In this document: piece after piece, positions 1 through 55,422 of the stretch | How positions within the stretch are numbered: position 1 is the first letter of the stretch | How the letters are laid out: each line of letters opens with the position of its first letter | Assembly: GCA_935421135.1 (NCBI GenBank) | Contig: OW285196.1 | Coordinates: 14,381,001 to 14,445,000 of the forward strand | DNA from: Bugulina stolonifera | Lineage: Eukaryota > Bryozoa > Gymnolaemata > Cheilostomatida > Bugulidae | Length of the DNA stretch: 64,000 nt | Direction of reading: 5' to 3' | Translations under genes and position numbers: made by a program | Notes under the pieces: generated by a model | What the model was told of the DNA's origin: nothing | Seen by the model: the letters and a program-made list of their open reading frames with translations, nothing else | Database searches by the model: none

Positions 1-948
1 GATTTTAGTAACTATCATTTCTGCTACTACTATCATAGTTGATAAATAACACATATGCACTGTGATTCTAGATCCAACCTGTAAGGATGAATGTACTGTT
101 GACTGTCGCTCTGCTGATCAGTTTGTTGGGACTGTTGGGAACCAGTTTAGCTTTGGACGTAGAACTGAGTGGTAAGTAAATGGCATGTACTTCCAAGTCA
201 TAGATCTCCTTTGAGCTTATCATCAGATTCTTTATGTTATATTCGTTTTTGTAAGTTAGAATTTGCATTAGGACTACCCTCTGTACCGGTTCTGTAACAG
301 ATTGCCTGTTTCTCTGAATTTATACAAGTGACTGTTGTCATATTTCATAATGAACTCTTATGTTGTGGTGGCCCTGGATAGAGACAAAGCCGGAAAATTA
401 TGATGATGAATGTGCTCTGATAATGGACAATTTTACTTTTTTATTTGACCTAAAACTATACGATAATTATTTTTATTCTTATACAGATCGATGGTAAATA
501 GTTTACATGTATGTGTGTTAATTTATATTTCACAGGCTGCTATAAAGATTGTGTTAAAGCAGGCAAGAAGGCATGTTTCTTAAACGCTGGCAGGAAGTCA
601 TGCGTCAGGGGTGTTAAGAAGTCATGCAAGAAGACGTGTTCTTAAATTATGCTTACTGTGGTTATGATCATGATTACATACAATGTATTTGGTGATTTCT
701 GAATAAAATCTGAGTCAAAGCTAAAATATTATTTTGTCGATGCTAAGCGAGATGCATGTATCTGTGGTTGATTTATACTTCAATCAACTTGTATGTGTTC
801 AATTATATAATGTAAATTCAGTTATTCACATAAATATAGGACAGTAACTGGTTTATATGAAACATAAAAGGTGATTTTACTAATTTGTGATAATCTCAAT
901 GACTCTGCTAAGTGGAAGTGCCATAAACTGGAAGACTGTCTACTCTAC
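1..948. repeat. Left arm of ~950-bp inverted duplication
   Basis: This arm is the reverse complement, with scattered differences and small indels, of about 1952-2950. Matching landmarks include the signal exon, the mature exon, the AATAAA region and the motif around 895-948 (tctcaatgactctgctaag against its complement at 1980-2005). It carries one complete hairpin-peptide gene and reaches the left edge of the window, so the true arm may be longer. A spacer of about 1 kb (949-1951) separates the arms. The two genes converge, 3' end to 3' end. Confidence 0.9.
87..645 (+). CDS. Secreted Lys-rich six-cysteine hairpin peptide (copy 1)
   Basis: Two coding exons, 87-171 and 536-645, joined by a phase-1 GT-AG intron. 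The acceptor ttctag at 71-76 just 5' of the ATG suggests a further non-coding exon upstream. Exon 1 encodes a typical signal peptide (MNVLLTVALLIS..., then a short acidic stretch DVELSG). Exon 2 encodes a mature domain of about 36 residues that is rich in Lys and has six cysteines spaced C-x3-C-x7-C-x8-C-x7-C-x3-C, followed by a single Ser and the stop. The spacing is mirror-symmetric, so nested disulphides (C1-C6, C2-C5, C3-C4) stapling two antiparallel helices are the natural model; this is an inference. An AATAAA signal lies at about 701. The function is unknown; a cationic antimicrobial or venom-like peptide is plausible. Confidence 0.82.
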
Positions 949-1951
949 TACAAATAACTCCAACTGACAACATTGTTGAAACTTGAGAATTTCTTGCATA
1001 GTTACGTTGTTTGGTCTCATTATACGTCTCTGTAGGGTGGGAAACCCACGGGCAAACACCAAATTTATTTCTCAATTTTGGGTCCGTTTCCAAAGCCTAG
1101 TATTGTGTAAATATGTGTTCAATAAAAAACCTTGTGATCCTATTAGAAAGAGTTGGTGCTCAGCTTTATAGCGATACATAATTTGCATGGTCTCAAAGAA
1201 TTATGTAATGTCTAATGTGTGTTCAAAATACATCCATTTATATTCGATAGCTAGGGTTATAAGGGTGGGGTGGGGGGGGGGGTTAATACTTTTTAACATG
1301 ACTTTATAGTCATGTAGATCATACTTTTAGACTCTTAGACTGAGAAGCACAATCTAGTGGTAATCCTGATCTCCAATAGACTGTGGCTGTCAGATCGGGA
1401 TGATACTTTTATTTGTACAATGCAGTTCATGTACATGGAGAGCAGAGAGCGTATTACAATAAAGGTGGACAACTCCAAATTTAGAACAGACCTGCTAGTT
1501 GAAATTTTCTATCTATACGTGACAGATTGTATCTCGTGTGCATCAATTTAGTAATAGAGAGTGTTCAAATCAGAAAATACATGGTTGCAATAATAAAACC
1601 TCTCTCACGTCTTAGTGTCCCACCTTCAGTAAAAATATCATTCGCTTGATGTGTTATAGTGCCCTGGTGTTTTGAGTGTTTTTGATGAATTGCAACAGAA
1701 ATATTTATGCTATTAAAATATGACATACATGTAGGTAATCAAAATGCAGCACCAACCAGTATTTGCATGTAATTAGAGAATTCCTTCTAGTAACGCACGT
1801 AGAAAATCAAAAACTTGTAAAGCATAACATTATGTTTATCTGGGGCTCACACTACAAGTTACCTATTCTATAATCTATCAAGTTACCAGAGTTTGATTTA
1901 CATGTATATAAAACCATCAACAGCCAGTATTGTTGTTTCAGTGTAACGTAT
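949..1951. other. Spacer between inverted arms, no gene seen
   Basis: This is AT-rich DNA with a short poly-G run near 1265-1282. I see no conserved ORF, splice-bounded exon or repeat array in it. Small ORFs are present, but none has features of a real gene. Confidence 0.6.
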
Positions 1952-2950
1952 TAGAGTAGACAGTCTTCCAATTTATGGCATTTCCACTTAACAGAGTCAT
2001 TGAGATATCACAAGTTAGTAAAACCACCTTTTATGTTTCATATAAACCAGTTACTGTCTTATATTTGTGTGAATAACTGAATTTACATTATATAACCGAA
2101 AACATGCGAGTTGATGAAGTATAAATCAACCACAGGTGAATGCATCTCGCTTAGCATCGACAAAATAATATTTTAGCTTTGACTCAGATTTTATTCAGAA
2201 ATCACCAAATACAATGTACGTAATCATGATCATAACCACAGTAAGCATAATTTAAGAACAGGTCTTCTTGCATGACTTCTTAACACCCTTGACGCATGAC
2301 TTCCTGCCAGCATTTAAGAAACAGCCCTTCTTGCCTACTTTAACACAATCTTTATAGCAGCCTGTGAAATATAAATTTACACACAAACATGTATAACTAT
2401 TTACTATCGATCTGTGTAAGAATAAAAATGATTATTGTATAGTTTTAGGTCAAATAAAAAAGTAAAACTGTCCACTATAAGAGCACATTCATCATCATAA
2501 TTTTTCGGCTTTGTCTCTATCCAAGGTCACCACAACATAAGAATTTATTATGAAATAATGACAACAGTCACTTGTATGAATTCGGTGAAACAGGCAATCT
2601 GTTACAGAACCGGTACAGAGGGTAGTCCTAATGCAAATTCTAACTTACAAAAACGAATATAACATAAAGAATCTGACGATAGGCTCAAAGGAGATCTATG
2701 ACTTGGAAGTACATGTACATGCCATTTACTTACCACTCAGTTCTACATCCAAAGCTAAACTGGTTCCTAACAGTCCCAACAAACTGATCAGCAGAGTGAC
2801 AGTCAACAGTACATTCATCCTTACAGGTTGGATCTAGAATCACAGTGTATTACAGCATTTATCTCTATAATATGTATGCCAAGATATCTGATATTTATCA
2901 ACTATGATACATTGTAGTAGTAGCAGAAATGATAGCTACTAAAATCATGT
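1952..2950. repeat. Right arm of ~950-bp inverted duplication
   Basis: Reverse-complement partner of 1-948, carrying the second gene copy on the minus strand. Differences are mostly single bases and short indels. The repeat has outlived its recent origin, and both mature-peptide reading frames are intact. Confidence 0.9.
2252..2818 (-). CDS. Secreted Lys-rich six-cysteine hairpin peptide (copy 2)
   Basis: Minus-strand paralogue of the gene at 87-645. The signal exon is 2818-2734 and the mature exon is 2361-2252, with a phase-1 intron. The signal peptide differs by Ala to Thr at residue 8. The mature peptide keeps all six cysteines in the same C-x3-C-x7-C-x8-C-x7-C-x3-C frame, with a few substitutions: Ala to Val, Ala to Gly and Arg to Lys. 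An acceptor-like tctag precedes the ATG, as in copy 1. The intact frame and mostly conservative changes suggest that both copies remain functional. I do not recognise a named family. Confidence 0.82.
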
Positions 2951-4330
2951 GTGTATTGAATACTGATTGGTGATATCTTTTCTATGATACAACATTTTTT
3001 TCTCGGAATATAGTATTAGACAATAGATGCCTACTGCATGTATTTGTATAAATATTGTCAAATCAGAGAATTGTTACATTGTGCACAGCAAGACAGAAGT
3101 GCTTACCTTTAGCTCTGATATTCAAAAGTATCTTGAAACTGGAGAAGCAATTGAATTGAGTTGGAAGAAAACATTCAAGCTCTTTTATACCTGCAATTTT
3201 GAACTTGATCAATCAACCAGCCAATCAGATCATGTCTTTAATCATATGGCGCTAGATATATTTAGGTACCAAACCTGCAACTTTGTGTATTTTTAGACTC
3301 AAGTTTTACACCTAACACCTTTCAGCGTATGCCCTTCCACAGCCAGCCAGACTCTCATGTATTATAATATTCCAATGAACTCAGATACATTGATAAGGGA
3401 TCGTGCACGCTAATTTCTAGATAAAATAGGACAGTGCTGTAGGGAAAAATTTGACTCGATAATTTGTTTAGAAACATAAAATGTTGCCTAGCCTTGTGAC
3501 TCAAGTTTAAAACAGCTATGCACTAAAATAATCATTACCTCTTTAGTAGAATTTAACTGATAATCTTGCCTGACTTTCTTTTCTTGGCTATAGGTTTTAT
3601 TGGTGTGTCACTACTTGTAGTCCAGTATGCCACAGTAATAGTCTTGTGCCTTAGATTTCTTGTTTTCACATCAATTACCACTACATTTCCCTCCAGTATA
3701 TTAAAGGTTGTATGATTTAACTCAAACTCACTTCCTTCACTTTATCTCCATGCTAATGATTGGTATTCAACCCCATTTTACAATAGAGATTCGAGACATT
3801 AGCATTGAGATAAAGTTGAGAAAGTTTGGGCAAGCTATCAGACACAATGGTGATGAGTTGTGGAATATGCTGGGTTTACAGGAGAACGACATGGACAATT
3901 GACAATTTGGATAAAGCTTCTCTGATTTTCTTCCCTAACAAATTAAGTTGATGAGGAAAAGTTTAGTTCATAAAAGGAAAGCCTTTAATAAAATCTAGCA
4001 GCATAACGATGTTGATTTGCTTCTCAACTCTAAAGCAATTCTCAGAAAAACCTTCAAGGTCTGTTTTCTTCTCTATTGCAGTATCCATAGTCATTTTATT
4101 ACTTTCTCATCAGAGCCACTAATCTAATTTTATTGTATTATTTGACATCCGCTGCCCGCTGGGTGACACACCATTCTTGTCAAATATTCGACTAAAAATA
4201 ATATAGGTGGGGAGTAGCTTGCATTCTGCTGGTAGCTGATGTTATATATAACTCCGCTTTACATAGTTACATTATAGGCTATTTGAATCATACATCCTGT
4301 CCAATAAATATATTTCATCACAGAGATATT
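2830..4330. repeat. 5'-flank duplication, copy A
   Basis: This stretch upstream of the minus-strand gene at 2252-2818 is collinear, with many indels, with 7320-8760 upstream of the minus-strand gene at 6744-7312. Shared landmarks are the segments ending in tttttagactcaagttt / tttttaggctccagttt, the ctagcagcat motif, and the stretch around the Gly-rich 'cccgctgggt / cccactgggt' block. A TATA-like tract on the minus strand lies at about 4240-4255. No intact ORF of note remains in this copy. Confidence 0.7.
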
Positions 4331-6740: not shown

Positions 6741-6743
6741 TTA

Positions 6744-7312
6744 TCAGCTCCTACCAGCTCTTTTGACATTCCTCAAACACTTCTTGGAATAGATTGGTGG
6801 ACACAGCCTTCTTCCCACGCTAACACAATATTTGTAGCAGCCTGTAGAAAATAACAATGAGTATTTGTTATGAAAGTGTTCTACTTAAAAATAAACATAT
6901 TATATGTTATATGTTATATGCATGTAATATCTGGTCAAATAGCAAAATACTATTCTATTGCTACATTTTTAGGATGAACTTTACATCTGTAATAATATAT
7001 GCAAGTATAAATACACAGAGACCGAGAATTTATTATAACATTTTTACTACGTAAGTCTATTCTTAATACAGATACGTTAAGTGCACAACGTACATGTAGC
7101 TTACCACAACATCCCAACCTAGGAATCTGATGGCAAACTCAAACCAGATAGAAGTTCACCTAAACCTATTGTATGTGCGAACAACTGCTTGTCCACTCAT
7201 AAACTAAAGATCAGACTGTATTAACTGTATGTTACTCACCATCTAAGGCTGAACTGGTCCCCAACAGCTCTAGCACACTGATCAGTAGAGTGACAGCCAA
7301 CAGTACATTCAT
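6744..7312 (-). pseudogene. Truncated paralogue of the Lys-rich hairpin peptide
   Basis: The signal exon is 7312-7240 (start MNVLLAVTLLIS, close to the 87-645 and 2252-2818 signals) and the second exon is 6841-6744, with a phase-1 intron. The mature part begins with the same G-C-Y-K-x-C block and then follows C-x3-C-x7-C-x7-C. Where the fifth cysteine should come there is Gly, and the frame stops at TGA three codons later. The last two of six cysteines, which would staple the outer turn, are therefore missing. It could be a decaying copy or a shortened four-Cys version; the truncation makes decay more likely. Splice sites and signal peptide look intact. Confidence 0.65.
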
Positions 7313-7319
7313 CCTTACA

Positions 7320-9770: not shown

Positions 9771-9778
9771 TTTACAAG

Positions 9779-11000: not shown

Positions 11001-11006
11001 TGTACA

Positions 11007-11488: not shown

Positions 11489-12531
11489 ATGAGATTTGCC
11501 TACATATCCATTCTGTTGTCATGCATGATGGCTCTTCTTGGACTAGCATTTGGTCAGCGAGGTAAGTAGTTTGCGAAATCATCATACATGTACCTTAATG
11601 TCATCTACATGTACTCAATTGTTAACTACCCTACGGTTCATGTTGTAAGATTTTACCTTAAAAAATAGACTATCATAGATTTAACAACAAAAGTGGTAGT
11701 GACATCTAAGAGTCAACTTTGTGAATATTTCTCTAATTCCTATGCCAGAGATTTTCCATTGCTGTGGTAGAATTGCTTATAATTGCTATCATTTACATTG
11801 TACATGAACTTACCGTATGTTGGGGGGTTTGGCCATTTTTTTATATATTGATGTATTTTAGCAAAGAAATTATTTTTGAGCAGTCAGAGACTTGTTTCAA
11901 ATCCATCAAAATATCAGTCCCTGACGGGGATTTGAACCCGGGCCTCTACGGTGCTGAGCTACACCACCTCAGCAACATTGGTTGTTGAGCTGGTGTAGTG
12001 GTAGCATGTTCTGTTCACTGCGCTAGGCAGTTAGGAGCCGGTTAGGTGCCGGATAGGTGCCAGTTAGGTGCCGGTTAGGTGCCGGTTAGGTGCCGGACAG
12101 GTGCCGGATAGGTGCCGGACAGGTGTCATAGATGTCCTGGGTTCAAACCCCAGTCAAAGACTGGTATTTTCATGTATTTGAAACAAGTCTCCAACTGCTC
12201 AAAACTAATTTCCTTGCTAACAATATATCAACTTACCGTATGCATATTGTACAATCCGTGCAACACAATCATGTAAGTTTAAATAGCGGTAAGAGACACT
12301 TACATGTAGCTGCGGACTACTAGTGCATACGTACATGTATTTGATTCAGCCTTTGTGCAGCCATGTTGGAAGTCAATTCCCTCTACTTTTTTTTCTATAG
12401 TGTCCTCGGAAGTGTGCTTCAACAAAAGGAAATTCATCTGCCTAAGAAACATGGAATATCTGCCAGATAATGCGGCAAATCCCCAAGGATACTGCAGTAG
12501 AGTAGCACAAATATTCTGTGTCCAGAAATAA
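11489..12531 (+). CDS. Secreted four-cysteine C-x7-C hairpin peptide (copy 1)
   Basis: Coding exons 11489-11561 and 12401-12531 are joined by a phase-1 intron. Exon 1 is a signal peptide (MRFAYISILLSCMMALLG..., ending FGQR). Exon 2 gives a mature peptide of about 43 residues with four cysteines spaced C-x7-C-x17-C-x7-C and a short Q-K end. The flanks of each cysteine pair, C-F-N-K-x and C-L-R, are shared with the gene at 14214. The intron holds a retroposon and a minisatellite. This is the inner part of the symmetric frame seen in the six-Cys members, without the outer C-x3-C turns. A two-helix hairpin is inferred; the function is unknown. Confidence 0.75.
11821..12229. mobile_element. Head-to-head tRNA-like retroposon with 13-bp target duplication
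   Basis: The insert is bounded by perfect direct repeats AACTTACCGTATG at 11807-11819 and 12230-12242. Its two halves are inverted repeats: 11861-11940 pairs with 12143-12217. Each half holds a tRNA-like Pol III promoter. On the minus strand an A-box-like ggtgtagctcag and a B box ggttcaaatcc lie near 11930-11975. On the plus strand tggtgtagtggtagca and ggttcaaaccc lie near 11990-12150. This is a head-to-head dimer of a tRNA-derived SINE, or a foldback element. It lies inside the intron of the 11489 gene. Confidence 0.7.
12030..12126 (+). repeat. 11-bp minisatellite
   Basis: About eight to nine units of ggttaggtgcc, alternating with ggataggtgcc and ggacaggtgcc. They lie between the A-box-like and B-box-like parts of the right-hand tRNA-like sequence, so the array expanded within the retroposon. 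Confidence 0.85.
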
Positions 12532-14213: not shown

Positions 14214-14942
14214 ATGAGGGTAATTGTGTTGTCTTTACTACTCAGCGCTGTGGCTATATTTGGGCTGAATGCCTGGAAACCTTCTGGTTGGGAAACTGGT
14301 ATGTAAGCTTACTACACCTGACACTCTATCTGATACATATATTTGCACCTGTCCAATTTTTTACTGGCACTATTTTTTTTGTTTTTAAGCTGCATTGTTT
14401 GTATCATAGAAATTAGAGCATTTTTGGTGATAGTACCATAGTACCAAGAGTTCACTTGTAAGTCCTTCATTAGTTCGAGCAACCAATTTGCTGAGGAGTC
14501 ATACATATACATGATTGTATTGTCACAATTATATATAGGTCTTGGTAATATTCGATATAAAGTGATGAAGGTAGCAATCAGTAAATGTCCAACTGCGTTC
14601 TTTAACAAGACATTCTGCACTGTGTTGTATAATCTGGTCCAGGGAAAGTCAATAAATCTCATTTCATGCCAATATTAAGTCTCTATATGTATAATTGCAA
14701 TCTATTCACCGCTATTGCTCTAAACTGTCTATAATTTACGGCAATCAGTCACAATTCTCCCCACACATACCGATGTACTTTCGCGCAATTGTTGATTTTC
14801 TATTTTTCTAGTGTCCTTTAAAGTCTGCTTTAATAAGAAGATGAATTTATGCTTAAGAGGGCAAGAAAACTGGCCAAACATCCGCGAGTATGATAGACGG
14901 CACTGCAAACGGGAAGCAGAATTATGGTGCTTTAGAAGATAA
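14214..14942 (+). CDS. Secreted four-cysteine C-x7-C hairpin peptide (copy 2)
   Basis: Exons 14214-14298 and 14812-14942, phase-1 intron. The signal peptide starts MRVIVLSLLLSAVAIFG and is followed by a short Trp-containing linker. The mature part has the same C-x7-C-x17-C-x7-C frame and the same V-S-x-x-V-C-F-N-K start as the 11489-12531 gene, but it is more basic in the second helix and ends R-R. Loop length is exactly conserved (17) although few loop residues are, which points to a structural constraint on cysteine spacing. Upstream DNA is also duplicated between the two genes. Function unknown. Confidence 0.75.
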
Positions 14943-15620: not shown

Positions 15621-16252
15621 AATAAAGAAAAGTAATAATAACTTGTTAATCCCTATTGATGATAAAATCAGAGAATTAATGTTTTCTCTGCTAACATTTA
15701 GAAGCTAAGGACTAGTCTCTAATCAATAATATTTATAGCATAGCTAGTAGATACTTCTAAGAACACACAGCAAACCCAATGTGAGCTAACTGGCTGAGGG
15801 TAGATAGCTTAGCTGCTGTACACGCAGTCAAAATTTTTTGCAAACTTGATGCATTAATAACTATAAAGCTAACTTATTAATCAACATAGCAAACTAGTTA
15901 AAATATTATAGATCAACCCTGCTATAAGGAAAACCATGCCTTGCCAACCACAAAGTTTGTTGATGTCTGGTAGAATTACCTTAGCACATGTTGGCACATG
16001 TTAGTACGTTAGCATGTTACAATGTAGCACATGGCCTTTTGCCATATTTCCTGGCATGGTTACCAGACAGTTATCATGGGGCGCTATGTACAATATATCG
16101 AAACTGAAAGATAAATTTAGTTATGCGGATTAAACTTAATTTAAATTTTAAAATTAATGATTTCCTCAAAAACACGCAAACCAAAATATGGAATGGATTG
16201 AACAGATTTGGCAAATCAACTTGTTTTCCTTAAAAATTGAACTATAAAAAAG

Positions 16253-16304
16253 GGAACAGCTTGTGTCTGCACCACAAAGCTTTTCCTCCACATGCACCAA
16301 ACAT
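16253..16304 (+). promoter_or_regulatory. TATA box and non-coding first exon of the 16782 gene
   Basis: TATAAAAA lies at 16253-16260. A putative 5'UTR exon ends at 16304 before gtaagt, and the partner acceptor (ttttttacag) is about 33 bases 5' of the ATG. The second copy, around 25621-25681, is nearly identical, which supports its being functional DNA. Confidence 0.6.
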
Positions 16305-16781
16305 GTAAGTCAAACTACTATCTTGAATATACAATGTACATGTATGTAGTCATCCTAAATAATTATTAGCTTCACTAACCTGCAGTATTTATGGTATTGG
16401 AATAATTGTTTATTTTATAATGCACTTAGAGTATAGCGGTTTACTGGTGAATATGAGATGTTAATACAATGTACACTAAATACGTACATTTAAATGGCTT
16501 ATGAGGTCTGATTTGTGCATTCTTCAATACAGCCTTCCAAACTTGGGTATGTCGTACATTTTCATTTGTGCTACTATAAGCAGAGTTGTGTTTTCTTGCC
16601 CACACTTGACCAGCCAACACTCTGTTAACTATGTTCTATGCTACCTCATACACTGCGAAATAACATTCCTGTAAATAACTTTTTGGTGTTATAACATAAA
16701 TTATATCAATGCTGTTTTGAAATGCATCTACTTGTGTGTTTTTTTACAGTTTTACACAGCTTATAAAAGAAAGCATCCATT

Positions 16782-17284
16782 ATGAAAACAGCTATTATAG
16801 TTCTACTGCTTTGCATGCTTGTTGCTGTATTTGGTGGACACCCTGGATGCCATCGCACGCCTGGATTTAGTAAGTACCAGTAGGTGCATTTAAATCAAAT
16901 ATTTTTATAGCCTCACAATTGCCAGATAGTTTTAACCTATCATTTTATTAACTTCAAAGTAAGAGTTCCATGTTGCGTTATTCACTGCCCTGCTTGACGT
17001 GTACAACTTACAAAAATGAAAGAAAATTGAATTACAGCGACTTATTGACACAGCTTTTCTACATAACTGGGACTTTCTTAGATTAATGCATTTTACGGTT
17101 AGAACAACATGCAGTTGGCTTTACCTTATATTTGTGGTAAAAGAACTGTCGTTATTGTATATTTGTTGCAGATGACTTTGATGCCTGTCTCTGCAGAGAG
17201 AAGGCTCTATGTGCACGGATATCACCATCTGATCCAGATTGCATCCAAAGAGCAGTAGCATACTGTTACAACCTTCAACCCTAG
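16782..17284 (+). CDS. Secreted Cys-rich peptide with C-x7-C pair (copy 1)
   Basis: Exons 16782-16869 and 17172-17284, phase-1 intron. The signal peptide starts MKTAIIVLLLCMLVAVFG, followed by G-H-P-G-C. The mature part has cysteines in the order C, then C-x-C-x5-C-x9-C-x7-C. Read without the second Cys of C-x-C this is C-x7-C-x9-C-x7-C, the same two-helix spacing as the 11489 and 14214 peptides. The loop is S-P-S-D-P-D, typical of a helix-capping turn. It is less basic than the other members. An AATAAA signal lies near 17440. I do not recognise a named family. Confidence 0.78.
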
Positions 17285-25380: not shown

Positions 25381-26155
25381 AGCACATACATGTTGCCACG
25401 TTTCCCGGCATCATTATCGGACAGTTATCATGGTGCCCTACACTACTGAAAGATAGCTTTAATTATGCACATTAAACATTTCATCCATTTCAACCATCAT
25501 TAAACCTTAGACAATAAACATTTCAAAATTTAAATTTTTAAATTAATGATTTCCTCAAGAGAATGCAAACCAGGATTGAACAGATTTGGCAAACCAACTT
25601 GTTTTCCTTAAATATTGAACTATAAAAAAGTGAACAGCATGTGTCTGCACCACAAGCTTTTCCTCCACATGCACCAATAATGTAAGTCAAACTACTATCT
25701 TAAATATACAATGTACTATGTAGTCATCCTAAATAATTATTAGCTTCACTAACCTGCACCAATTTACACTGTAGGTGATAATGTCAGAATATTGCTTTTT
25801 TTGCAATGATATAGACTAAAGCGGTTTGCTGGCATGCAATGTGTTTAAATGTTGATCACCCTACATTAAGTGGCCCATGAGGTCTGGTTTATGTACATGT
25901 ACAGCCTTTTAAAGTTAGGTTTGTTGTATTTGTGCTTCTATGAGCAGAGTTGTTTCCTCTTGCTCAGACTTGACCAACCTATGAACAAAACTCTATTAAC
26001 TGTGCTTTATGCTAATAAAGGAATAAAATAATTGCACATGAATATTTAGGCTTTTAACATAATTATATCAAGGGTGTTATGAATTACGTCTACATGACTG
26101 TGTGTTTTTACAGTTTTACACAGCTTGTAGAAGATAGCATTCATTGAGAGCAGCT

Positions 26156-28541
26156 ATGATAATCATAATACTTCGCATGCTTGTTGCTGTGTCTGGCGGA
26201 CACCCCGGATGCCATCGAATGCCTGGATTTAGTAAGTACCGGTAGATGGTTTTGAATCACATATTTTTTGTAACTCCACAATCCCCAGATATAGTTTTAA
26301 CCTATTTTTTAATATCCCCAAAGAAAGAGTGCCGTGTTGCGTGATTCAGTGCCCTTCTTGACGTCTACAACTTGCAAAAATGAAAGAAAATTGAATTACA
26401 GCGACTTATTGACACAGCTTTTGTAGTGACGACAAACGTCACAACTGTCACAACACCAACAAACGTCACAACAGTTTTTCGACAAACATCACAACACCGA
26501 CAAACGTCACAGCACCGACAAACGCCACAACAATTTTTCGACAAACGTCACAACACCGACAAACGTCACAAAGGTTCAACGACAAACGTCACAATGCCAA
26601 CAAATATCACAAATTTTCTATAAAATGACACCATAACATCAAAATATGATGCTTTTTGCTTTAATTTACCCTTCAATTTGATTATTGTTTGCCGTGTTTT
26701 AAAAACTGAAGAAAACCGAAGATAGTTAAAAACAGAATGTGACAACTCCCAATTGAGAACATGGAATTAAGGATTCAATTTTTTTGTTAAAAATCAAGAC
26801 AGCTGAGCAGAAGCAGATCTACTTCTGCACAGTTGTCTTGTTTTTTAGCAAAAAAATTGAATCGATAATTTAATGTCTTCTATGTGGAGTTGTCATACTC
26901 TGCAGTCTATATAGTGATTATAATAATTTAATACTAGCTACATGTATATACTCGTATAATAACACACACACATAATAACATGTTGATTAAAACTGAAACA
27001 AGTCTTTACTGGATGTCAACAATGATCGTAGCAAAATACGAATAGCTAGGATCACTCAGGTAAGATAAAAACACCAGTTATTGCCGGGAATGTCAGGCTA
27101 AACGAATTATGGGATAGAGGTTACTTCCCAATATTATGATAATTGCATCGAGTTGCATCTCGGTTTTTGATACAATTTTCTATTGGACAATTTTGTCGAT
27201 TTTGAATTGAGAGCGAATAATTTCCGAAAAAAACAAATTATATCAAAACATTGTGTAGCACTATGTCTAGTAGTAGAGTAGCATATATTTTTAATTTCAT
27301 GTAGATCCTTGCATTTAGTTATACAGTGATGTACTTTGTTAGCAAGGAATTTATAGTTATAGTTATACATTTAATAGTGATAAATAGGCAGGAGAGTTCC
27401 ACCTGTCTTCATATTCTACAAGCAGATGGTTCTCGGACTAAGGTGTCATAACATATTCCCTTTAGATCTGTTGCCGTCTGCATGGTATTTTTAATTTAGA
27501 GAAGTGGTGGTGCGTGTGAGATCTAGGCTATGTGTACAAATGTGATGCAAAACTTCGGCCCTTTGACCAGAATGTGATTTAATGCAATTTTCATATGTAC
27601 TGTGCATGTAGTTAAATGGCCATTAAAGGATATTTCGTTTAGCTTGCCCATATCTGGTAATAGCTGGTGTTTTCATCTTTATTGAGTGACCCTTGCCATT
27701 CATATTTTGCTACAATCATTGTTTCCATTCAGTAATGACTATTGTTTCAGTCCTAATTAACATGTTATACTTACATGACTGTATAATGATGCATGTACAT
27801 GCATATTATCAAAATACGTGTGTGTGGTTACAGTTGTATTGAATGATTATAATTTAAATAAATTCATTGTATGGGCTGCATAATTAACAGCAGAGTGTGA
27901 CAACTCCCAATGGAGGATACTTATTTAGCAATTAAATTTTTTCGCTAAAAATCAAGATGGTTGGTCAGAAACAGATCTACTTCTGCTCAGTTGTATTGGT
28001 TTTTGGCAAAAAAATTGAATTGCTAATTTCATGTTCTCTATTGGGAGTTGTCCCACTCTGCTTTTAACCATCTTCGGTTTTATTCAGTTTTGAAAATACA
28101 AGAAACAAAAATAATCCAATTGAAGGGTAAATCAAGGCAAAAAGCATTATTTTTGGTGTTACGGCGTTATTTTATTGAAGATGTGTGATATTTGTTGGCA
28201 TTGTGACGCTTGTCGTTGAACCTTTGTGACGTTTGTCGGTGTTGAGACGTTTTTCGAAAAATTGTTGTGACGTTTGTCGGTGTTGTGACAGGTGTGACGT
28301 TTGCCGTCGCTGCAGCTTTTCTACATCACTGGGATTTTTTTAAATTAACACTTTTACTGTTAGAACAACAGTTGATTTTGCCTCATATTTGTGGTAAAAG
28401 AACTGTCATTATTGCATATTTGTTGCAGATGACTTTGATGCCTGTCTCTGCAGAGAGAGGGCTCGATGTGCACGAATAGCACCATCTGATCCAGATTGCA
28501 TCCAAAGAGCAGTAGCATACTGCTACAACCTTCAACCATAG
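26156..28541 (+). CDS. Secreted Cys-rich peptide with C-x7-C pair (copy 2, altered start)
   Basis: Paralogue of 16782-17284. Exon 1 is 26156-26231 and exon 2 is 28429-28541, phase-1 intron. A 2-bp deletion removed the ancestral start codon. An Ile to Met change at codon 5 supplies an in-frame ATG, which gives a signal sequence shorter by four residues, with an Arg in the hydrophobic core where copy 1 has Cys. The mature exon is nearly unchanged: all cysteines are kept and there are only a few substitutions. The intron contains a 1.9-kb foldback element. Secretion may be weakened. It could be a functional variant or an early pseudogene; the well-kept mature exon leaves both open. A TATA box (25621-25628) and the non-coding exon are conserved. 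Confidence 0.6.
26424..28312. mobile_element. hAT-type non-autonomous foldback element
   Basis: The insert is flanked by 8-bp direct repeats CAGCTTTT (26415-26422 and 28313-28320), with one extra G on the left. The paralogous intron at about 17050-17060 is the empty site. Its termini, TAGTGACGACAAACG and the complement of the right end, CAGCGACGGCAAACG, fit hAT-type TAGNG/CAGNG ends. Arms several hundred bp long are inverted repeats. Subterminal arrays of an 18-bp unit (acaaacgtcacaacaccg) lie at 26430-26612 and 28198-28300. Inner palindromic modules lie at 26737-26895 and 27893-28065. There is no transposase. Confidence 0.85.
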
Positions 28542-35277: not shown

Positions 35278-36121
35278 TTATATCCATGGGGTGCATATCT
35301 TTAGACATTTTTTCTCTCCATGTGCGTAGCATTCCTGGTTTCCGTTGCATTTCTGAAAGACCAGACACAAACATTCCCCCAAGCAGTCTAAAATTAACAT
35401 AATTATAATACATCATTATAATATTGCTTTAGCAATGAGCAGATGGATTAGGAGAACATATATTCTGTTTCTGTTCATCACATCAATATATTGTACGGAC
35501 GTGTTTTGTGGTATGTTCTAGATGGAACAGTCAAATTCAAACATGAAGCTACTTGCACTGCTGCTAATGTGTAAATATCGGAGGGTTCGTTGCATGAACT
35601 ACAGTGTTATGTACAAGTAGAATAGGACCATTGTTTGGCAGTGTTTAGTCATTGCAGTTCCAGTTCAACATCGTATAGTCTTATTCCAAATTGAAACTCA
35701 AGTTCCCTGAGCACTGAAGGTAAATACAGCACTTGAGCATTATACTGTATTGAGCATTACATGTATCGGTGAATACGTGTTATACATGTATATGTATTGA
35801 CAGTATGGGAACATTCTTAGAATGGTAGGCCTATAAGCTGCATGTACATGTACATATAAATGATGCATTGCATAATATGCAATTGCGTTTGGTAGCCTAA
35901 ACCAATTTACATTGTAGGCTACATGTATACGACATTGCAATGCAATACAGAATGATATTATTTTATGTTAAGAAAATGCATGTAAAAAATGCATTACTTA
36001 AGTTTCAATACAAACACTTGTCAAAAGGAGTTCTTCTGGGTTTCTTACATCTTCCTCCCCTTCTCGTCTCTGCCATGGCAAGGAGACATAAAAGTAACGT
36101 GACCATTACGATAATCCTCAT
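35278..36121 (-). CDS. Secreted hairpin peptide with short loop and seventh cysteine
   Basis: Signal exon 36121-36049 (MRIIVMVTLLLCLLAMAE, then T-R-R-G-G-R) and mature exon 35387-35278, phase-1 intron; neither exon makes an ATG-started ORF of note on its own. The mature peptide of about 36 residues has cysteines spaced C-x3-C-x7-C-x5-C-x7-C-x3-C plus one extra Cys directly in the first x7 segment (C-L-C), as in the 16782 gene. The loop is N-G-N-Q-E and the end is T-P-W-I. It is only mildly basic, unlike the Lys/Arg-rich relatives. The signal peptide (MRI...LLLCLLA) is closest to those at 41801 and 47461. A secreted disulphide-rich peptide; function unknown. Confidence 0.75.
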
Positions 36122-39930: not shown

Positions 39931-39934
39931 AGTA

Positions 39935-40923: not shown

Positions 40924-41801
40924 TTAGCCACGCGCATTGAGTACTGGAGCTGTTGAATCAGGGCTTGTAGTCTGTGGACTTGTGGTTGTAGTCAGCGATA
41001 CATGGCACTCTCTATGGCACCTTCTTCTGGCTCGTCTCACACATTTCCTCGGGTTTGAATTATTTCTGCATTCTCTTCTAGCCTGACGGAGGCATTTTCT
41101 CATACAACCTGCAAAGTACCAGTCACAGAACTAGTAATGTGGCTTAATGCACTTCACACAATAATCAACTCTAGCTGAACATTACATCGAAGGGAAAATA
41201 TATGAGACCATAACATGGATATATGAGACCATAACATGGATATATGAGACCATAACATGGATATATGAGACCATAACATGGATATATGAGACCATAACAT
41301 GGATATATGAGACCATAACATGGATATATGAGACCATAACATGGATATATGAGACCATAACATGGATATATGAGACCATAACATGGATATTGCTTGATGT
41401 CTTATGTGTTAATTAGCTTTCTTGGTGCAAAAAATTACCTCAAACTCAACATTATTACGATAATGCAGATGGCTGGCAAGATTTAACTCAAAATCGTCAC
41501 ACTGGTCTATGCCAATAAATTTTATATGTTGCAAGTTTTACAAAGCGAACCTAATTTACAGTACATGTAAATTCAGATAACATTAGCAATAAATAAAAAT
41601 ATTCTTTCACCACCTCTGACACACAAAGCTCAGAGTATCAGATCTACCCTCGGATAAGCTGGTAAAAATACATACAATATAAAATGCCATCTACAGTGTG
41701 CTAACCAGAAGAGAATGTGTAAGCTTACGTTTATTAGTTCTTCTACTGTTTATCAGAGCCAGGAAACATAACAGTAGGACAGCGAGCAGAAGAATCCTCA
41801 T
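40924..41801 (-). CDS. Secreted Arg-rich six-Cys hairpin peptide with Thr-rich tail (copy 1)
   Basis: Signal exon 41801-41729 (MRILLLAVLLLCFLALINS, then R-R-T-N-K) and mature exon 41108-40924, phase-1 intron. A TATA box on the minus strand (42367-42374) and a putative non-coding exon with donor at 42308 precede it. The mature domain is strongly basic with the exact symmetric frame C-x3-C-x7-C-x8-C-x7-C-x3-C, identical in spacing to the Lys-rich gene at 87-645 but with unrelated filling residues. It is followed by a tail of about 25 residues rich in Thr, Pro and Ser, likely O-glycosylated. The N-N-S in the loop is a possible N-glycosylation site. Paralogue of 46519-47461. Function unknown. Confidence 0.82.
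41199..41389. repeat. 19-bp minisatellite, about 10 units
   Basis: Near-perfect tandem copies of atatgagaccataacatgg inside the intron of the hairpin gene 40924-41801. They are absent from the intron of the paralogue at 46519-47461, so the expansion followed the duplication. The open frames across it are repeat artefacts. Confidence 0.97.
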
Positions 41802-42374: not shown

Positions 42375-42379
42375 CTCTA

Positions 42380-44270: not shown

Positions 44271-44271
44271 A

Positions 44272-44338: not shown

Positions 44339-44342
44339 ATAT

Positions 44343-46500: not shown

Positions 46501-46518
46501 TACATGTAAATGCGGCTG

Positions 46519-47461
46519 TTAGCCTGCAAGTGCAGGTGTAGGCCCAGCAGTGGTCATAGGAGCTGGTGTAACAGTGCTTGTGGTGGTAGTCAGTCCTACA
46601 TGACACCTTCTATGGCACCTTCTTCTGAGTCGTGCAAAACATCTCTTCGGGTTTCGAGTCTGTCTGCATCGCCGTCTGCCTCGAGTGACACATTTTCTCA
46701 CACAGGCTACAACCAAGTAGTTACATAATTATATAAGCATAAACTTCGATTTCCATGCAAGTTTCACCTCTGGGAACAAAAATTCATCAGCTAGAAAGTC
46801 TCAGATATTGTAGAAATTTTTTTGTTTGCATAATGGTTTTGTCGTAAGTAGAATAAACCCAAAGCAACCACAAATTGTATTTGGTCACTGGCCAATGACA
46901 ATACAGAGAATTATAATTGGGAAAGTTCTGAATTCAAATTGATGGAAGGACAACTCTTAACAGGACAAAATTGTGACTACACGCATAAGTATACATATTT
47001 TGCCAAAAGTGCATATTCTGCTATTTATACTATGGGAACATTTAAAACGTACTAGTTTAATTGAAGCAACCAACACATAAATTTTGTATTGTTTTTAGAT
47101 TTCATCCTAAAAATAATGTTGTTGGCATGGATTTAGATTGTTTATAGTTTTTTTCAAAGTCATTTCTGTTCTAAATTATAATAATTGATCTAGTTGGAAG
47201 GAGCAGCTACACCGTAAGATCTGATTCCACTTCTACTATCAACGGGATTTGTAAAAGATTCATTTTTTCTACCATTTTCTCGTATATATAATGTGCACAC
47301 GAATAATGTTTTAAACTGATGATACCTTTCTTCCTACATATTATAGTAGGCCGTCATCATAAACAGAAGATTGTGTAATGTAACTTACATCTGTCAGCCC
47401 TTCTAGCGTTAATCAGTGCCAGGAAACATAACAGTAGGACAGCAAGAAGAAGAATCCTCAT
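46519..47461 (-). CDS. Secreted Arg-rich six-Cys hairpin peptide with Thr-rich tail (copy 2)
   Basis: Signal exon 47461-47389 (MRILLLAVLLLCFLALINA) and mature exon 46706-46519, phase-1 intron. The signal peptide is almost identical to that at 41801. The mature domain is very Arg-rich, keeps exactly C-x3-C-x7-C-x8-C-x7-C-x3-C, and is followed by a Thr/Pro/Ala-rich tail. Between the two paralogues the cysteine positions and basic character are kept while many other residues differ; the signal exon has changed much less. This is the pattern seen in fast-evolving defence and venom peptides. Function unknown. Confidence 0.82.
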
Positions 47462-47940: not shown

Positions 47941-47946
47941 CTTATA
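47941..47946 (-). promoter_or_regulatory. TATA-like box of the 47461 gene
   Basis: TATAAG on the minus strand, followed by a putative leader exon ending at 47881 before gtagag. It corresponds in position and sequence to the promoter at 42367-42374. Confidence 0.55.
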
Positions 47947-48565: not shown

Positions 48566-48819
48566 ATTTATTCTTTCTCGTAGTTAGGTCATTCTAGTTG
48601 TTAAGTTCCTCGACCTTGCAACACGAACTGCCTACTAGGTTGGATCACTCTCTTTCTCAGTACAGCAAACAAGCATTGGCTCGGGATCATATGGGTCGTC
48701 TTTGGTAGTTCTTGGACTACTAGTACCTGTTAATCTTTCATGTAATGAGAAGGCCTAGCACCACTCATAGGCACTTCATTTTGGACTTGGGAGTCGTCCT
48801 AGGACCAAAAACCATTGCA
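48566..48819 (+). mobile_element. Diverged 3' fragment of the LTR
   Basis: Matches the last ~250 bp of the solo LTRs (ctactaggt..ggat, actcataggcacttcatt, ending accattgCA) with many substitutions. It is older than the two full LTRs. Confidence 0.75.
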
Positions 48820-51800: not shown

Positions 51801-51850
51801 TATAGGCTATATGTACATAGAGTTGCATAATTCTGAGTAATGCCATGATA
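48820..51850. other. Intergenic, no gene recognised
   Basis: AT-rich DNA. Several short ORFs occur on both strands (for example near 50030-50400) without splice context or recognisable composition. Nothing could be supported. Confidence 0.45.
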
Positions 51851-51851
51851 T

Positions 51852-52647
51852 TGTAATGGTACAGGACATTTGTATACGACTCCAACTACTGGACAAAGCC
51901 CTACAACACCCCGAGTGCCAAGTAGTTGTCACAGTGCCACTCAGCTAACACTCAAACTCTCATAACTAGCTGTTCGTATACCCACATCCAACTGTATTGC
52001 ATGTCAAACCATTTAATTACTGTCTATATATGTGTATATATGTATTGTTATCCATTCTATTTGATTACCTACTGCTGTGCATTCGTGTATGATTATTACT
52101 AAGTCTTTTTATGCTTTTTATACCCATGTACAGAGGCCCGATCTCTCAGAATTACCTGATATTCATTTTGTACATGAATTGGACCATTATAAGCAACTTT
52201 TGTATAACCCGACCTATTTTGGGTCAGCCGTCGGGCTTCCGGCGGCCATGTTGTTGCGCAACTTCTGGACGACCTTATATCGTCTTTTCCAGACACTACG
52301 TCGGGCGGAAGTCCTTATACTATATAAAGGGCATTGTTCCACTGTTCATTGTCTCAGTCTTCACTTGGCTTTCAATAAAGACACATCTATACTTGATACA
52401 GAGACTTTCACTTCCTTTTGCCAGGTCATTCGCTTAGCGAACCGCCTACTAGGTCGGATCACTCTCTTTCAAGGTATAGTCTGAAGGTCAGACTTAGGAC
52501 CAGATGGGTCGTCTCTGGTAGTTATTGGGCTACTGAGACCGCTCGATCTTTCATGTAATGCGAAGGCCTATCACCACTCATAGGCACTTCGATTCTGAGT
52601 CAGTAGTCGTCCAAGGACGACCGCACCAAATCACAGAAACCATTACA
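51852..52647 (+). mobile_element. Solo LTR, copy 2
   Basis: Begins TGtaatggt and ends accattaCA, with ATAT on both sides. A TATA box lies near 52320 and AATAAA near 52375. Same orientation as copy 1, with clear but imperfect identity. It ends about 120 bp before the signal-peptide-like exon at 52765. Confidence 0.85.
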
Positions 52648-52764
52648 ATATATAATTATTGTTAAAGTGACAGGGTGCAGTAATAAAACTGTATGATATC
52701 ACTACTAAGACTCTAGTGTTACACTGCAGTCCTTTTCAGCATACTTTATTGCTACTATTAAAAG

Positions 52765-52849
52765 ATGCTACAATTTTGCCGTATCAGCCTTTTCATCATA
52801 GGCGGTCTGACGGTTCATCTCACTCATCAGATGTGTAACAAACCTTCAG
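52765..52849 (+). CDS. Orphan signal-peptide exon
   Basis: An ATG shortly after an acceptor-like ccttttcag (52732-52740) opens 28 codons starting MLQFCRISLFIIGGL and ending H-Q-M-C-N-K-P-S. They end at a consensus-like donor (G|gtacat) in phase 1. Length, phase and hydrophobic profile match the signal exons of the hairpin genes. I found no convincing mature exon downstream before 54.4 kb, so it may be a decayed gene, or its second exon may be too diverged to recognise. Confidence 0.4.
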
Positions 52850-54390
52850 GTACATTACTTTGTATTACATGAATATGGGAGATAAGACAGTGCATGTATG
52901 AATGCAATATCACTGCAACTTTTCAGAACTGGGGTTAGAACTTGCACCTAATTGTTGGCTACAAATATTGCAAAACTATAACATTGTGGAGTGGAGTGAC
53001 CTAACTTAGCTTTTTTGACACTTTCAGTAGCCAGTAGCTAAAGGGAGAGCTGACTTGGAAAAAGTGTCATAGAGGGTGTAGCATGGACTGTGCAGGATAA
53101 TATTAAGCATAGAACTGACTACCCCAAACACTAAATGGGCGGACAATGTACGTTCCCTTCCTTGCAGCAGTTGAAATTCCTGTATATAACTCGAGACCTC
53201 AAAGTTTAGCACTGGTTGTAGTTCAGCAGATATGATCAACTACAGCTTCTTATTAATAGTATATACTCATACTTATACATTATGAACATACTATCATACC
53301 TTAACTATCTCTGCAATTCAGAGTTGAAACTTCAAAGAGGTTCAAAGATAATATTGGCATCAAGTTGAGTTACTTCTGCATACATGGCTCAGATGTTTGA
53401 CATTTTGCTACGCTTCATAAATAAACCTTGTAAAAGATCTTCAAGTATTTTCAAACACTTCTAAAGCAGAAAAATTTCAAGTTTGAGCATTTAGGCACCA
53501 TAGGTATTTAACTAATAGGCCTATTTTTGAAAAAAGTTGGCTAAAATTAAATTGCATTTGCCAATTTCCCTGAGTAAATTACATGGCATTGTATCAAAGT
53601 TCAAACAGAATTTGACTTACATAAATACGTTTTAGCGACATGAATACACGGAAAAAAGGAACATATAAATCAGCTAACTAAGCACTGGTTCGTACAATAA
53701 AATACTTGACTTCGGTGTTATAGTATTGTACAATATTTCTAGTTATAGTTTCCAATCCGAAGGTTCCCTTGTCTGGTTAATTTGGTTCACCACCCCATCA
53801 AGTTATTTTTACACTGAATTCCAATTGTTTTTTTCAAAGAATTTAATTAGATTAGATTCTCACACTCCACCATTGTCAGCAACACCATGATTGTGGTGTG
53901 TGGCCAGCAGGGAAAAAGTAGACTTGATGTTTCGTTTGACTAAGGCCTAAATCCTGGTTCATGGTTGTAGTAAAGTGGTAAGAGTTGAGATCTACATGTA
54001 TATATTGTGGAAGACAAATTCTACATATAATACACCTGTGACTGAGAAACCCAGGCTATGCTTACCCCATCCAAATAGAACCCAGGCTATGCTATATTTA
54101 TGTAGAATTATTCCTAACTCTATCCGAATAGAACCCAGGCTATGTTATATTTATGTAGAATTATTCCTAACTCCATCTGAGTAGAAACTATCAGCTGTTT
54201 TCCTGGTTTGTGGTGCCATCATTATACTCTGAATGTGTACATTTAGCACTAAGCAATCCATTATATGATTTTGAAGTACATGAATTCTGAAGAACTATGA
54301 ATCAAGTGACTATGGCAGAGTGCCAGCAAATAGGTCACAGCTATTAATGTTATTGCACAGCGCAATTTGCACAATAATGCTTTTTGATCA
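52850..54390. other. Intergenic, short direct repeats
   Basis: A motif, gaacccaggctatg, recurs three times with small changes between 54045 and 54145. No gene was recognised; a mature exon for the 52765 signal was sought and not found. Confidence 0.5.
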
Positions 54391-54399
54391 GAAAATTGG

Positions 54400-54473
54400 T
54401 ATAAAAGGGGCATAACCCAAAGTGAGAACCATTGTCGCTCCCAGACTTCTCCGATTCAGGTTTTCATTCAAAG
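54400..54473 (+). promoter_or_regulatory. TATA box and non-coding exon of the 54787 gene
   Basis: TATAAAAG lies at 54400-54407. A leader exon is inferred to end at 54473 before gtaaag. Confidence 0.6.
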
Positions 54474-54786
54474 GTAAAGTAATAACAAGTTTTTTCAGTA
54501 TCACTTTTTTGGCAATTGTGTTCTCAATTATGCAGATTCGACGTGCTAGACATTGTCAACTCCACAGATAGTCATGCAAATTGACTTCCTAAACTGCGCA
54601 TCTAAGTGACAAAACTATAATATTTCTTCATATTACTTATCTTAGACCATCCTGCTGATTGAGTGGGCAGTATTAAACATTGAACTACATTGTAATAAAT
54701 TTTATATAGAAAGAAACAAATAATGTACTAGAATGTCAGCCACATTTTATTGTAGTGTTGGACTCTGTGGGGTCTATCTCTTAGCT

Positions 54787-55422
54787 ATGAGGATACAGAT
54801 AATATTGGCTCTTTTCTCGTGTGTTATATTGGCGCTGATTGCTACTGCTACTGCACAAGGAAATGGTAACTTATATGTACAATATTTATATACCTTTGAG
54901 CAATATACAAATTGTGGCATAACATTCCGCCATTTTAGATAAATTACATGTAGGAACGAATTGGCTTTTAAGTTAGTACTAACATATTGATACAGATTTG
55001 CAATCAGGCATTTACATATTTTCTTTCCTAAACCGCCATGTTCAATGTACAGAAGGTGCTAGCGCCTACATGCATGTTAACTGTTTACATTTTTGTTAGC
55101 TCATGTGCATAAATACATGTAGCTATGTAAATGTTACATTTAATATATTATAAGAAAAAATAATATGTATTGCCAATATTTTCTGTTGGCAGGATGTGTG
55201 GGTTCTTGCTTGAGGACACCTGGGAAGGCAAGAAGGCTTAAAAGATGTCGTAGAATTAGAAACAGAAAGAGAAAGAGAAGGTGTATAAAGAGAGTAAGGA
55301 AATCGTGCAGAAAGATATGTCAAAACCCTACAACAATGTCACCAACAACAATGGCACCAACAACAATGTCACCAACAACCCCAACTACCACCACCACCAC
55401 TCCTGTGACCACAACAGCTTAG
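54787..55422 (+). CDS. Secreted basic six-Cys hairpin peptide, extended arm, Thr-rich tail
   Basis: Exons 54787-54865 and 55193-55422, phase-1 intron. The signal peptide begins MRIQIILALFSCVILALIA. The mature domain has six cysteines spaced C-x3-C-x12-C-x11-C-x7-C-x3-C. The outer turns and second arm match the family; the first arm and loop are longer, with a very basic R-K-R-K-R-R stretch. A tail of about 30 residues is built of repeats of P-T-T-M-[SA], then poly-Thr, similar in kind to those at 40924 and 46519. It is on the opposite strand to those two. AATAAA occurs near 55634. Secreted, likely glycosylated tail; function unknown. Confidence 0.8.

What the first reader, a model, noticed from the sequence alone, without database searches (positions are those of the whole stretch)
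87..55422. A cluster of secreted peptides with a mirror-symmetric cysteine frame
Joining short exons by eye gives at least ten small secreted-peptide loci in 55 kb. Five have C-x3-C-x7-C-xN-C-x7-C-x3-C with N = 8, 8, 8, 8 and 5. The spacing reads the same in both directions although filling residues differ completely (Lys-rich, Arg-rich or near-neutral). Others keep only the inner C-x7-C ... C-x7-C, or only the outer C-x3-C ... C-x3-C. Symmetry of this kind is what nested disulphides across two antiparallel helices would need. I know C-x3-C ... C-x3-C from alpha-hairpinins and helical kappa toxins, but not this three-rung version. It looks like an undescribed multigene family of stapled helical hairpins.
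Basis: partly seen in the sequence, partly recalled or inferred. Interest (0 to 1): 0.92.

Follow-up and report, generated by a model that had tools for sequence, protein, structure and literature searches.

The report
Bryozoan cluster of cysteine-stapled secreted peptides
A stretch of a moss-animal (bryozoan) chromosome carries a tandem family of small secreted peptides that keep their cysteines and signal peptide while almost every other residue changes, which looks like a diversified defence or toxin-like peptide set.

Summary
The window is chromosome 10 of a bryozoan, almost certainly Bugulina stolonifera, not a sponge. It holds 11 two-exon loci, 87-55422: signal-peptide exon, phase-1 intron, cysteine-frame exon. 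Five have the exact frame C-x3-C-x7-C-xN-C-x7-C-x3-C, N = 8,8,8,8,5; 60 shuffles gave none. At least 16 more loci follow to the right; the matches of 11 whole-genome exon queries all lie in one 213-kb cluster. Homology rests on more than cysteines: the signal peptides share a Leu-Leu-x-Cys core, and a signal-exon profile found six further exons, four followed by a six-cysteine frame (control 0 of about 4000). CX3C at both ends holds in 20 of 20 readable six-cysteine exons; exact mirror spacing in only 8. Nested disulphides across antiparallel helices are geometrically feasible, but no fold could be predicted (server busy, 26 tries). Helical hairpins with three or four disulphides are already reported in cnidarians and nemerteans, so the architecture is not new; I found no earlier report or relative of this family. 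Function is inferred: diversified host-defence peptides.

The parts
87..645 (+). gene A: signal exon 87-171, intron 172-535 (phase 1, GTAAGT..CACAG), frame exon 536-645; full frame N=8, Lys-rich
   Evidence: near-identical to B
2252..2818 (-). gene B: signal exon 2818-2734, frame exon 2361-2252; inverted duplicate of A, full frame N=8
   Evidence: exon 2 94% identical to A, dN 0.037 dS 0.157
6744..7312 (-). gene P1: A-like copy, signal exon 7312-7240, frame exon 6841-6744 ending before Cys 5 and 6; probably a pseudogene
11489..12531 (+). gene S1: signal exon 11489-11561, frame exon 12401-12531; two-rung type C-x7-C-x17-C-x7-C
14214..14942 (+). gene S2: signal exon 14214-14298, frame exon 14812-14942; two-rung type C-x7-C-x17-C-x7-C
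16782..17284 (+). gene C: signal exon 16782-16869 (carries one Cys after the signal), frame exon 17172-17284; inner C-x7-C-x9-C-x7-C only
26156..28541 (+). gene D: duplicate of C with a 2.2-kb intron; signal exon 26156-26231 (weak: scores -14.0 on the signal profile), frame exon 28429-28541
   Evidence: exon 2 94% identical to C
35278..36121 (-). gene E: signal exon 36121-36049, frame exon 35387-35278; full frame N=5, near-neutral, seven cysteines
40924..41801 (-). gene F: signal exon 41801-41729, frame exon 41108-40924; full frame N=8, Arg-rich, Thr/Ser/Pro tail
46519..47461 (-). gene G: signal exon 47461-47389, frame exon 46706-46519; full frame N=8, Arg-rich, Thr/Pro tail; paralogue of F
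   Evidence: 56% core identity to F
54787..55422 (+). gene H: signal exon 54787-54865, frame exon 55193-55422; C-x3-C-x12-C-x11-C-x7-C-x3-C, net core charge +21, long Thr/Pro tail

Best explanation
A tandem gene family of bryozoan secreted peptides, spread by local duplication over at least 213 kb of chromosome 10. Exon 1 makes the signal peptide; a phase-1 intron follows; exon 2 makes a 27-42-residue core, in five readable members (F, G, H, M2, Q) with a Thr/Pro-rich, possibly O-glycosylated tail. SHOWN by sequence: gene architecture, clustering, related signal peptides, six cysteines with CX3C at both ends in the main class, loss of nearly all other similarity. INFERRED: the core folds as two antiparallel helices joined by a turn and held by nested disulphides C1-C6, C2-C5 and C3-C4. 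The two outer rungs are fixed; the third varies in position or is lost. A scaffold held this way needs few fixed residues, so its surface can change quickly. INFERRED, weaker: the peptides are released onto the colony surface or into secretions as host-defence agents (antimicrobial or deterrent). The strongly cationic members would bind anionic microbial surfaces; the neutral members would have other targets.
For: Eleven loci in the window with exon pairing far above control. Whole-genome protein searches with 11 different exon-2 queries (1 to 5 matches each) hit only C10:14.381-14.594 Mb (E cut-offs 1 to 10). Signal peptides of 15 subfamily representatives: mean identity 0.267 against 0.180 +/- 0.006 when the hydrophobic core is shuffled, 0 of 5000 shuffles as high; Cys at position 12 in 11 of 15, Leu at position 9 in 13 of 15. 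Signal profile over 4967 ATG frames in 304 kb: apart from its 15 training exons, 10 score 8.8 or more; best other score 6.7. With each training exon left out, 13 of 15 still exceed 6.7. Of the six exons it added, four have a six-Cys CX3C..CX3C frame within 1800 nt, against 0 of about 4000 random positions in the left 100 kb and 214 of about 4000 over the whole 304 kb, members included. Nested pairing has the lowest misfit of six inter-helix pairings in 7 of 7 spacing classes; the full frame fits to 0.72 A, reached by 8.75% of 1200 random spacings. Turn-forming residues: 62 of 155 between the inner cysteines, 60 of 346 in the arms, p = 1.4e-7 over 18 cores (paralogues, so not independent). N1/N2: frame exon differs at 26 of 93 sites, adjoining intron at 18 of 222, p = 1.1e-5, cysteines all kept, as in arms-race genes. 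Net core charge runs from +21 to -3.
Against: No expression, proteomic or structural evidence; AlphaFold2 never accepted a job. That the nested pairing wins is partly built in, since antiparallel helices favour it; the informative control is the random spacings, and there the classes H, M, N and T6 fit only to 1.15-1.48 A, which 13-18% of random spacings also reach, while among 169 mirror-symmetric spacings 19.5% fit as well as the full frame. The U1 class and the two-rung types were not fitted. Proline sits inside arm 1 in H, Q, M1, T4, T6 and inside arm 2 in N1, N2, U2 (8 of 18 cores), which argues against two continuous helices there. C2-C3 and C4-C5 spacings differ by up to five residues, so the third rung cannot be the same everywhere. 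E has an odd cysteine. The signal profile is not perfect: left out of training, S2 (-3.3) and N1 (2.2) would be missed, and D scores -14.0. Diversifying selection is suggested by one of five pairs only; A/B, C/D, M1/M2 and F/G show dN below dS, and T2/U4 have 99% identical frame exons beside a 75% identical intron. Near-neutral members do not suit a simple cationic antimicrobial role.
Confidence: 0.6

Rival explanations
1. The same gene family, but the mature peptides are water-borne signals or recognition molecules (mate, larval settlement or colony self/non-self cues), working like molluscan attractins.
For: Small, cysteine-rich, with a signal peptide, fast-changing, one peptide per precursor (M excepted); attractin is a 58-residue water-borne peptide with three intrachain disulphides and one copy per precursor (passages of PMC3484142). 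Some members are neutral. That a sessile colonial animal needs such cues is general knowledge.
Against: Net core charges of +10 to +21 in six members (A, B, F, G, H, Q) and Thr-rich tails seem unusual for a pheromone; precursor cleavage was not tested; no expression data.
Confidence: 0.17
2. The same gene family, but the products are structural: components of mucus, cuticle or rhizoid and larval adhesive, the cationic head binding polysaccharide and the Thr/Pro tail carrying glycans.
For: Thr/Pro tails in F, G, H, M2 and Q; strongly basic heads.
Against: 15 of the 20 readable six-Cys members lack such a tail; N1/N2 change faster in the frame exon than in the intron; charge varies from +21 to -3.
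Confidence: 0.13
3. The genes are real, but the fold is not a nested helical hairpin: other disulphide pairing or a short-helix and turn fold.
For: Prolines in the arms of 8 of 18 cores; variable inner spacing; geometry of four of seven spacing classes no better than 13-18% of random spacings; no structure could be predicted.
Against: Helix-compatible i,i+4 cysteines at both ends in 20 of 20; full frame, T1 and T2 classes fit to 0.72 A or better; helix-favouring composition in each arm against the linker in 15 of 18 cores.
Confidence: 0.3
4. Chance open frames or decayed copies without expression.
For: P1 and T5 look decayed; each gene is short; no RNA evidence.
Against: Zero of 60 shuffles, exon pairing 10 of 13 against 2.8%, related signal peptides, dN below dS in A/B, C/D and M1/M2.
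Confidence: 0.03

Closest known systems
[quoted passage not shown]
   Same: Secreted small peptides; two helices cross-linked by several disulphides, in predicted models three bridges for U-GRTX-Esi20 and four for Esi21; part of a very large superfamily of duplicated cysteine-rich peptides (passages of PMC11896702; PMC11722136)
   Different: Cnidarian; no sequence match in PDB at E<=10; cysteine spacing not compared, because the sequences were not fetched
Neurotoxin B-IV / nemertides beta (Nemertea)
   Same: Helical hairpin cross-linked by disulphides (PDB 1VIB; passages); also a marine spiralian secretion product
   Different: Eight cysteines and four disulphides; the related B-I has six cysteines; no sequence match found
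alpha-hairpinins (plants) and kappa-KTx / conotoxin vil14a (CS-alpha-alpha)
   Same: Helix-loop-helix; four cysteines in alpha-hairpinins (abstract start of PMC11591084 in the listing); two helices cross-linked by two disulphides in vil14a and CS-alpha-alpha peptides; CX3C at both ends is recalled, not from a call
   Different: Four cysteines, two rungs; here six cysteines in the main class; other kingdoms or phyla
Attractins (Aplysia)
   Same: Small secreted peptide, three intrachain disulphides, one copy per precursor (passages); two antiparallel helices with nested pairing is recalled only
   Different: 58 residues, N-glycosylated; no sequence match found
Conotoxin gene superfamilies
   Same: Works-like only: a conserved signal peptide with a fast-changing mature part and conserved cysteines (recalled; PMC4278219 seen only as a listing)
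   Different: No propeptide region between signal exon and frame was noticed here; other phylum; no toxin function shown

Membership tests
The bryozoan family described here | signal exon, phase-1 intron, frame exon | tested here: met
   gene models for 11 of 11 window loci; strict control 10 of 13; T5 and two unread places have no signal exon assigned
The bryozoan family described here | related signal peptide across subfamilies | tested here: met
   0.267 vs 0.180 +/- 0.006; 13 of 15 recovered when left out; S2, N1 and D not
The bryozoan family described here | six Cys with CX3C at both ends | tested here: met
   20 of 20 six-Cys exons; S1, S2, C, D, P1, T5 depart
The bryozoan family described here | exact mirror spacing 3-7-N-7-3 | tested here: not met
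   8 of 20
alpha-hairpinins | four cysteines | tested here: not met
   six invariant cysteines in 11 of 11 aligned cores
alpha-hairpinins | helix-loop-helix fold | not testable with these tools
acrorhagin-like / B-IV helical hairpin toxins | sequence relationship | tested here: not met
   0 PDB matches at E<=10 by profile and by two single sequences
acrorhagin-like / B-IV helical hairpin toxins | two helices cross-linked by three or four disulphides | tested here: inconclusive
   geometry and composition agree in part; no model or measurement
acrorhagin-like / B-IV helical hairpin toxins | toxic activity or venom expression | not testable with these tools
   no expression or assay data
any Pfam-A family | match to a curated model | tested here: not met
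   0 families for 11 of 11 cores at E<=5 (HMMER filters drop most weak matches)

The most novel reading that the evidence does not exclude
Bryozoans evolved their own superfamily of hypervariable secreted peptides on a ladder-like helical hairpin, in which two outer disulphide rungs are fixed and the inner rung is shifted, added or dropped like an adjustable part. It evolved independently of the cnidarian, nemertean, scorpion and plant hairpins and is used as the colony's peptide defence or venom-like arsenal.
Probability: 0.35. Interest if true: 0.78.

Novelty: new variant of a known kind. Interest (0 to 1): 0.6.

Why it matters
I met no described defence-peptide family of bryozoans: the titles and abstract starts listed by two searches on bryozoan terms (12 of 106 and 10 of 22 papers listed) name none, and passages of one paper on Bugula neritina peptide transcripts (PMC4990251) show none of this kind. 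Searches for such a frame (six papers listed, no paper, 10 of 38 listed) named no three-rung frame of this spacing in what I saw. These searches cover open-licence papers only. If the fold is right, the family is a natural series of one scaffold with two, three and shifted rungs and core charges from +21 to -3, which makes it possible to test how far disulphides alone can specify a fold. It also adds one more likely independent origin of the stapled helical hairpin, bearing on why this shape recurs in secreted defence peptides and toxins.

Tried and rejected
Sponge origin: rejected by COX1 and assembly size. Chance frames: rejected. Family-wide mirror symmetry: rejected. Relatives elsewhere: profile with tails, none at E<=1 among the 8000 candidates scored (words from Thr-rich tails may have crowded it); tail-free profile, 17 candidates, none at E<=10. 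That search needs shared five-residue words and short genes are often missing from protein sets, so absence is weak evidence. The search for related loci found no stretch conserved enough to search with. Attractin structure: two searches listed no structural paper. Two dispersed sequences at 16169-16309 and 25541-25699 (minus) resemble each other; the one near the first has only a weak signal-like ATG upstream and they were set aside without a test. The geometry test uses ideal straight helices with recalled constants; the helix-propensity scale is recalled too.
Full report
WHERE IT IS. The window is G000:C10:14381001-14445000 of a 235-Mb assembly. Its 14,440-bp contig C27 carries a COX1 that reads with the invertebrate mitochondrial code and is 90% identical to that of Bugula neritina; the named best matches are bryozoans. 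PMC10213821 (first of two parts of the full text read) reports Bugulina stolonifera tzBugStol2.1: 235 Mb, 14.4-kb mitochondrion, chromosome 10 of 16.13 Mb. C10 is 16,132,500 bases. The match is close but not letter-perfect: the paper gives 30 scaffolds and 234,982,697 bp, the held copy has 27 contigs and 234,951,659 bp. The organism is therefore a cheilostome bryozoan, almost certainly B. stolonifera; the sponge label in the finding is wrong.

THE OBSERVATION. A six-frame scan finds the full frame C-x3-C-x7-C-xN-C-x7-C-x3-C five times in the window and in 0 of 60 second-order Markov shuffles. Over 304 kb the only other hits are family members Q, T3 and T4 and three low-complexity stretches. 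Each has a signal-peptide exon ending in a phase-1 donor (GTAAGT and variants) and a frame exon behind a normal acceptor. Pairing was tested against controls: 10 of 13 frame exons have such an exon within 800 nt, 2.8% of 20,000 random positions do, and 0 of 13 on the other strand.

BEYOND THE WINDOW. Neighbouring sequence was fetched for 100 kb to the left and 140 kb to the right. On the left no member was found. The right side holds gene M (one signal exon and two successive frame exons, M1 and M2), N1, N2 and Q, then T4, U3, T1, T2, T3, U1, U2, T5, U4 and T6. T5 has five cysteines and no signal exon assigned. Two more places, C10:14589899-14589991 and 14593657-14593755, were located but their letters were not available. 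This makes 27 loci with a frame exon, 11 in the window and 16 to its right, from 14.381 to 14.594 Mb. Eleven exon-2 queries (F, A, M2, Q, N2, C, E, T3, S2, U2, T1) hit nothing elsewhere in the genome (E cut-offs 1 to 10; the tool says counts are lower bounds). H and several others were not used as queries.

ONE FAMILY, NOT CONVERGENT CYSTEINES. The cores share almost nothing but cysteines (11 cores, mean column identity 35%, six invariant columns, all Cys). The signal peptides, however, are alike: mean pairwise identity 0.267 over positions 2-20 in 15 representatives against 0.180 +/- 0.006 when each hydrophobic core is shuffled, none of 5000 shuffles as high, with Leu 9 in 13 of 15 and Cys 12 in 11 of 15. 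A position profile from those 15 was run over 4967 ATG frames in 304 kb. Apart from the 15 it was built from, ten exons scored 8.8 or more and the best other frame 6.7. Four of the ten (B, G, P1, N2) were known members. Six were added (194122, 197051, 184260, 201218, 23693 and 96170, all minus strand; 96170 had been listed before), and four of these six have a six-cysteine frame downstream. A segment of that kind lies within 1800 nt downstream of 0 of about 4000 random positions in the left 100 kb and 214 of about 4000 over the 304 kb, true members included. The profile has misses: left out of training, 13 of 15 still pass 6.7 but S2 and N1 do not, and D scores -14.0. In 17 of 20 six-Cys exons the first cysteine is the second codon of the exon; N1, N2 and Q are the exceptions.

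HOW FAR THE MIRROR GOES. In 20 readable six-Cys exons (A, B, E, F, G, H, M1, M2, N1, N2, Q, T1, T2, T3, T4, T6, U1-U4; E has a seventh Cys) C1-C2 and C5-C6 are x3 in 20 of 20; C4-C5 is x7 in 16, x6 in 3, x4 in 1; C2-C3 is x7 in 10 and 3, 4, 11 or 12 in the rest; the exact mirror 7/7 holds in 8. Dropped before this count: P1, T5 (decayed-looking), S1, S2, C, D (other cysteine types) and two unread places. So the fixed part is a pair of CX3C motifs; the inner rung moves.

FOLD. Ideal antiparallel helices were fitted to the cysteine positions of seven spacing classes (19 of the 20 exons; U1's class was not fitted) for all six cross-helix pairings. Nested C1-C6, C2-C5, C3-C4 was best in all seven: 0.72 A for the full frame, 0.0-1.48 A for the others; the next pairing was at least 1.4 A worse. 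Antiparallel geometry favours that order by itself, so the better test is against other spacings: 8.75% of 1200 random spacings reach 0.72 A and 17.8% reach 1.5 A, and among 169 mirror-symmetric spacings 19.5% and 36.7% do. The support is real but moderate, and weak for the least regular classes. Turn-forming residues gather between the inner cysteines (62 of 155 against 60 of 346, p = 1.4e-7, 18 cores including paralogues). Against it, 8 of 18 cores have proline inside an arm. AlphaFold2 never took a job (26 attempts), so the fold is an inference.

EVOLUTION. Five pairs were compared. A/B, C/D, F/G and M1/M2 have dN below dS. N1/N2 differ at 26 of 93 sites in the frame exon but 18 of 222 in the adjoining intron (p = 1.1e-5), dN 0.375 above dS 0.241, with all six cysteines kept: diversifying selection in this pair is likely, though it is one pair picked out of five. 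T2/U4 show the reverse, a 99% identical frame exon beside a 75% identical intron, which looks like gene conversion or strong constraint. M carries two in-line frame exons; M1 could splice to M2 in phase 1, giving a two-domain product, or the two could be alternatives (sequence; inference).

FUNCTION. Secretion is implied by the signal exon. Net core charge runs from +21 (H, Q) to -3 (T2). F, G, H, M2 and Q carry Thr/Pro-rich tails. A tandem, apparently lineage-restricted, fast-changing family of this make-up most often serves defence (general knowledge), hence my preference for host-defence peptides, at moderate confidence; signalling and structural roles remain open.

COMPARISON. A disulphide-stabilised helical hairpin is called an emerging motif in peptide toxins (title in the reference lists seen). 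B-IV of nemerteans and acrorhagin I have four disulphides (passages of PMC11722136), and the modelled U-GRTX-Esi20 of a sea fan has three, in a very large superfamily (passages of PMC11896702). So a three-bridge hairpin is not unheard of. No sequence relationship to solved structures or Pfam was found. I therefore file this as a new family that may work like those hairpins, not as a member of any of them.

Noticed in passing
window 60788-63926: G+C rises to 0.447 (60001-64000) and four long plus-strand ORFs appear; the one at 62265-62924 matches Pox_A32 packaging ATPase (E 1.3e-6), the others nothing. Looks like a Maverick/Polinton-type element; observed only.
   Followed up: no
L037 (G000:C26) and L038 (G000:C12): Two small contigs encode COX1 proteins of about 700 residues with a long insert, followed by a NAD1-like frame, which look like ciliate mitochondrial DNA: probably colony commensals in the assembly (the ciliate and NAD1 readings are mine, untested).
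   Followed up: partly
window coordinates 74805-75740 (L019): Gene M has one signal exon and two successive frame exons 280 nt apart (start to start); the first may end in a phase-1 donor, so the product may be a two-domain peptide or two alternative ones.
   Followed up: partly
window coordinates 188240 and 201218 (minus): T2 and U4 have 95 of 96 identical bases in the frame exon but only 75% identity in the intron: possible gene conversion of the mature exon.
   Followed up: partly
window 23693 (minus) and window coordinate 96170 (minus): Two family-like signal exons with no six-Cys frame found within 1800 nt behind them: orphan exons or decayed genes.
   Followed up: partly
window 35278-35387 (minus): Gene E carries seven cysteines, an odd number, so a free thiol or a disulphide-linked dimer is possible.
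   Followed up: no
window 41174-41401 (minus): Tandem array of a short unit (reads CYGLIYP) inside the intron of gene F, just upstream of its frame exon.
   Followed up: no
window 26232-28428: The intron of gene D is 2.2 kb against 302 nt in its duplicate C, suggesting an insertion.
   Followed up: no
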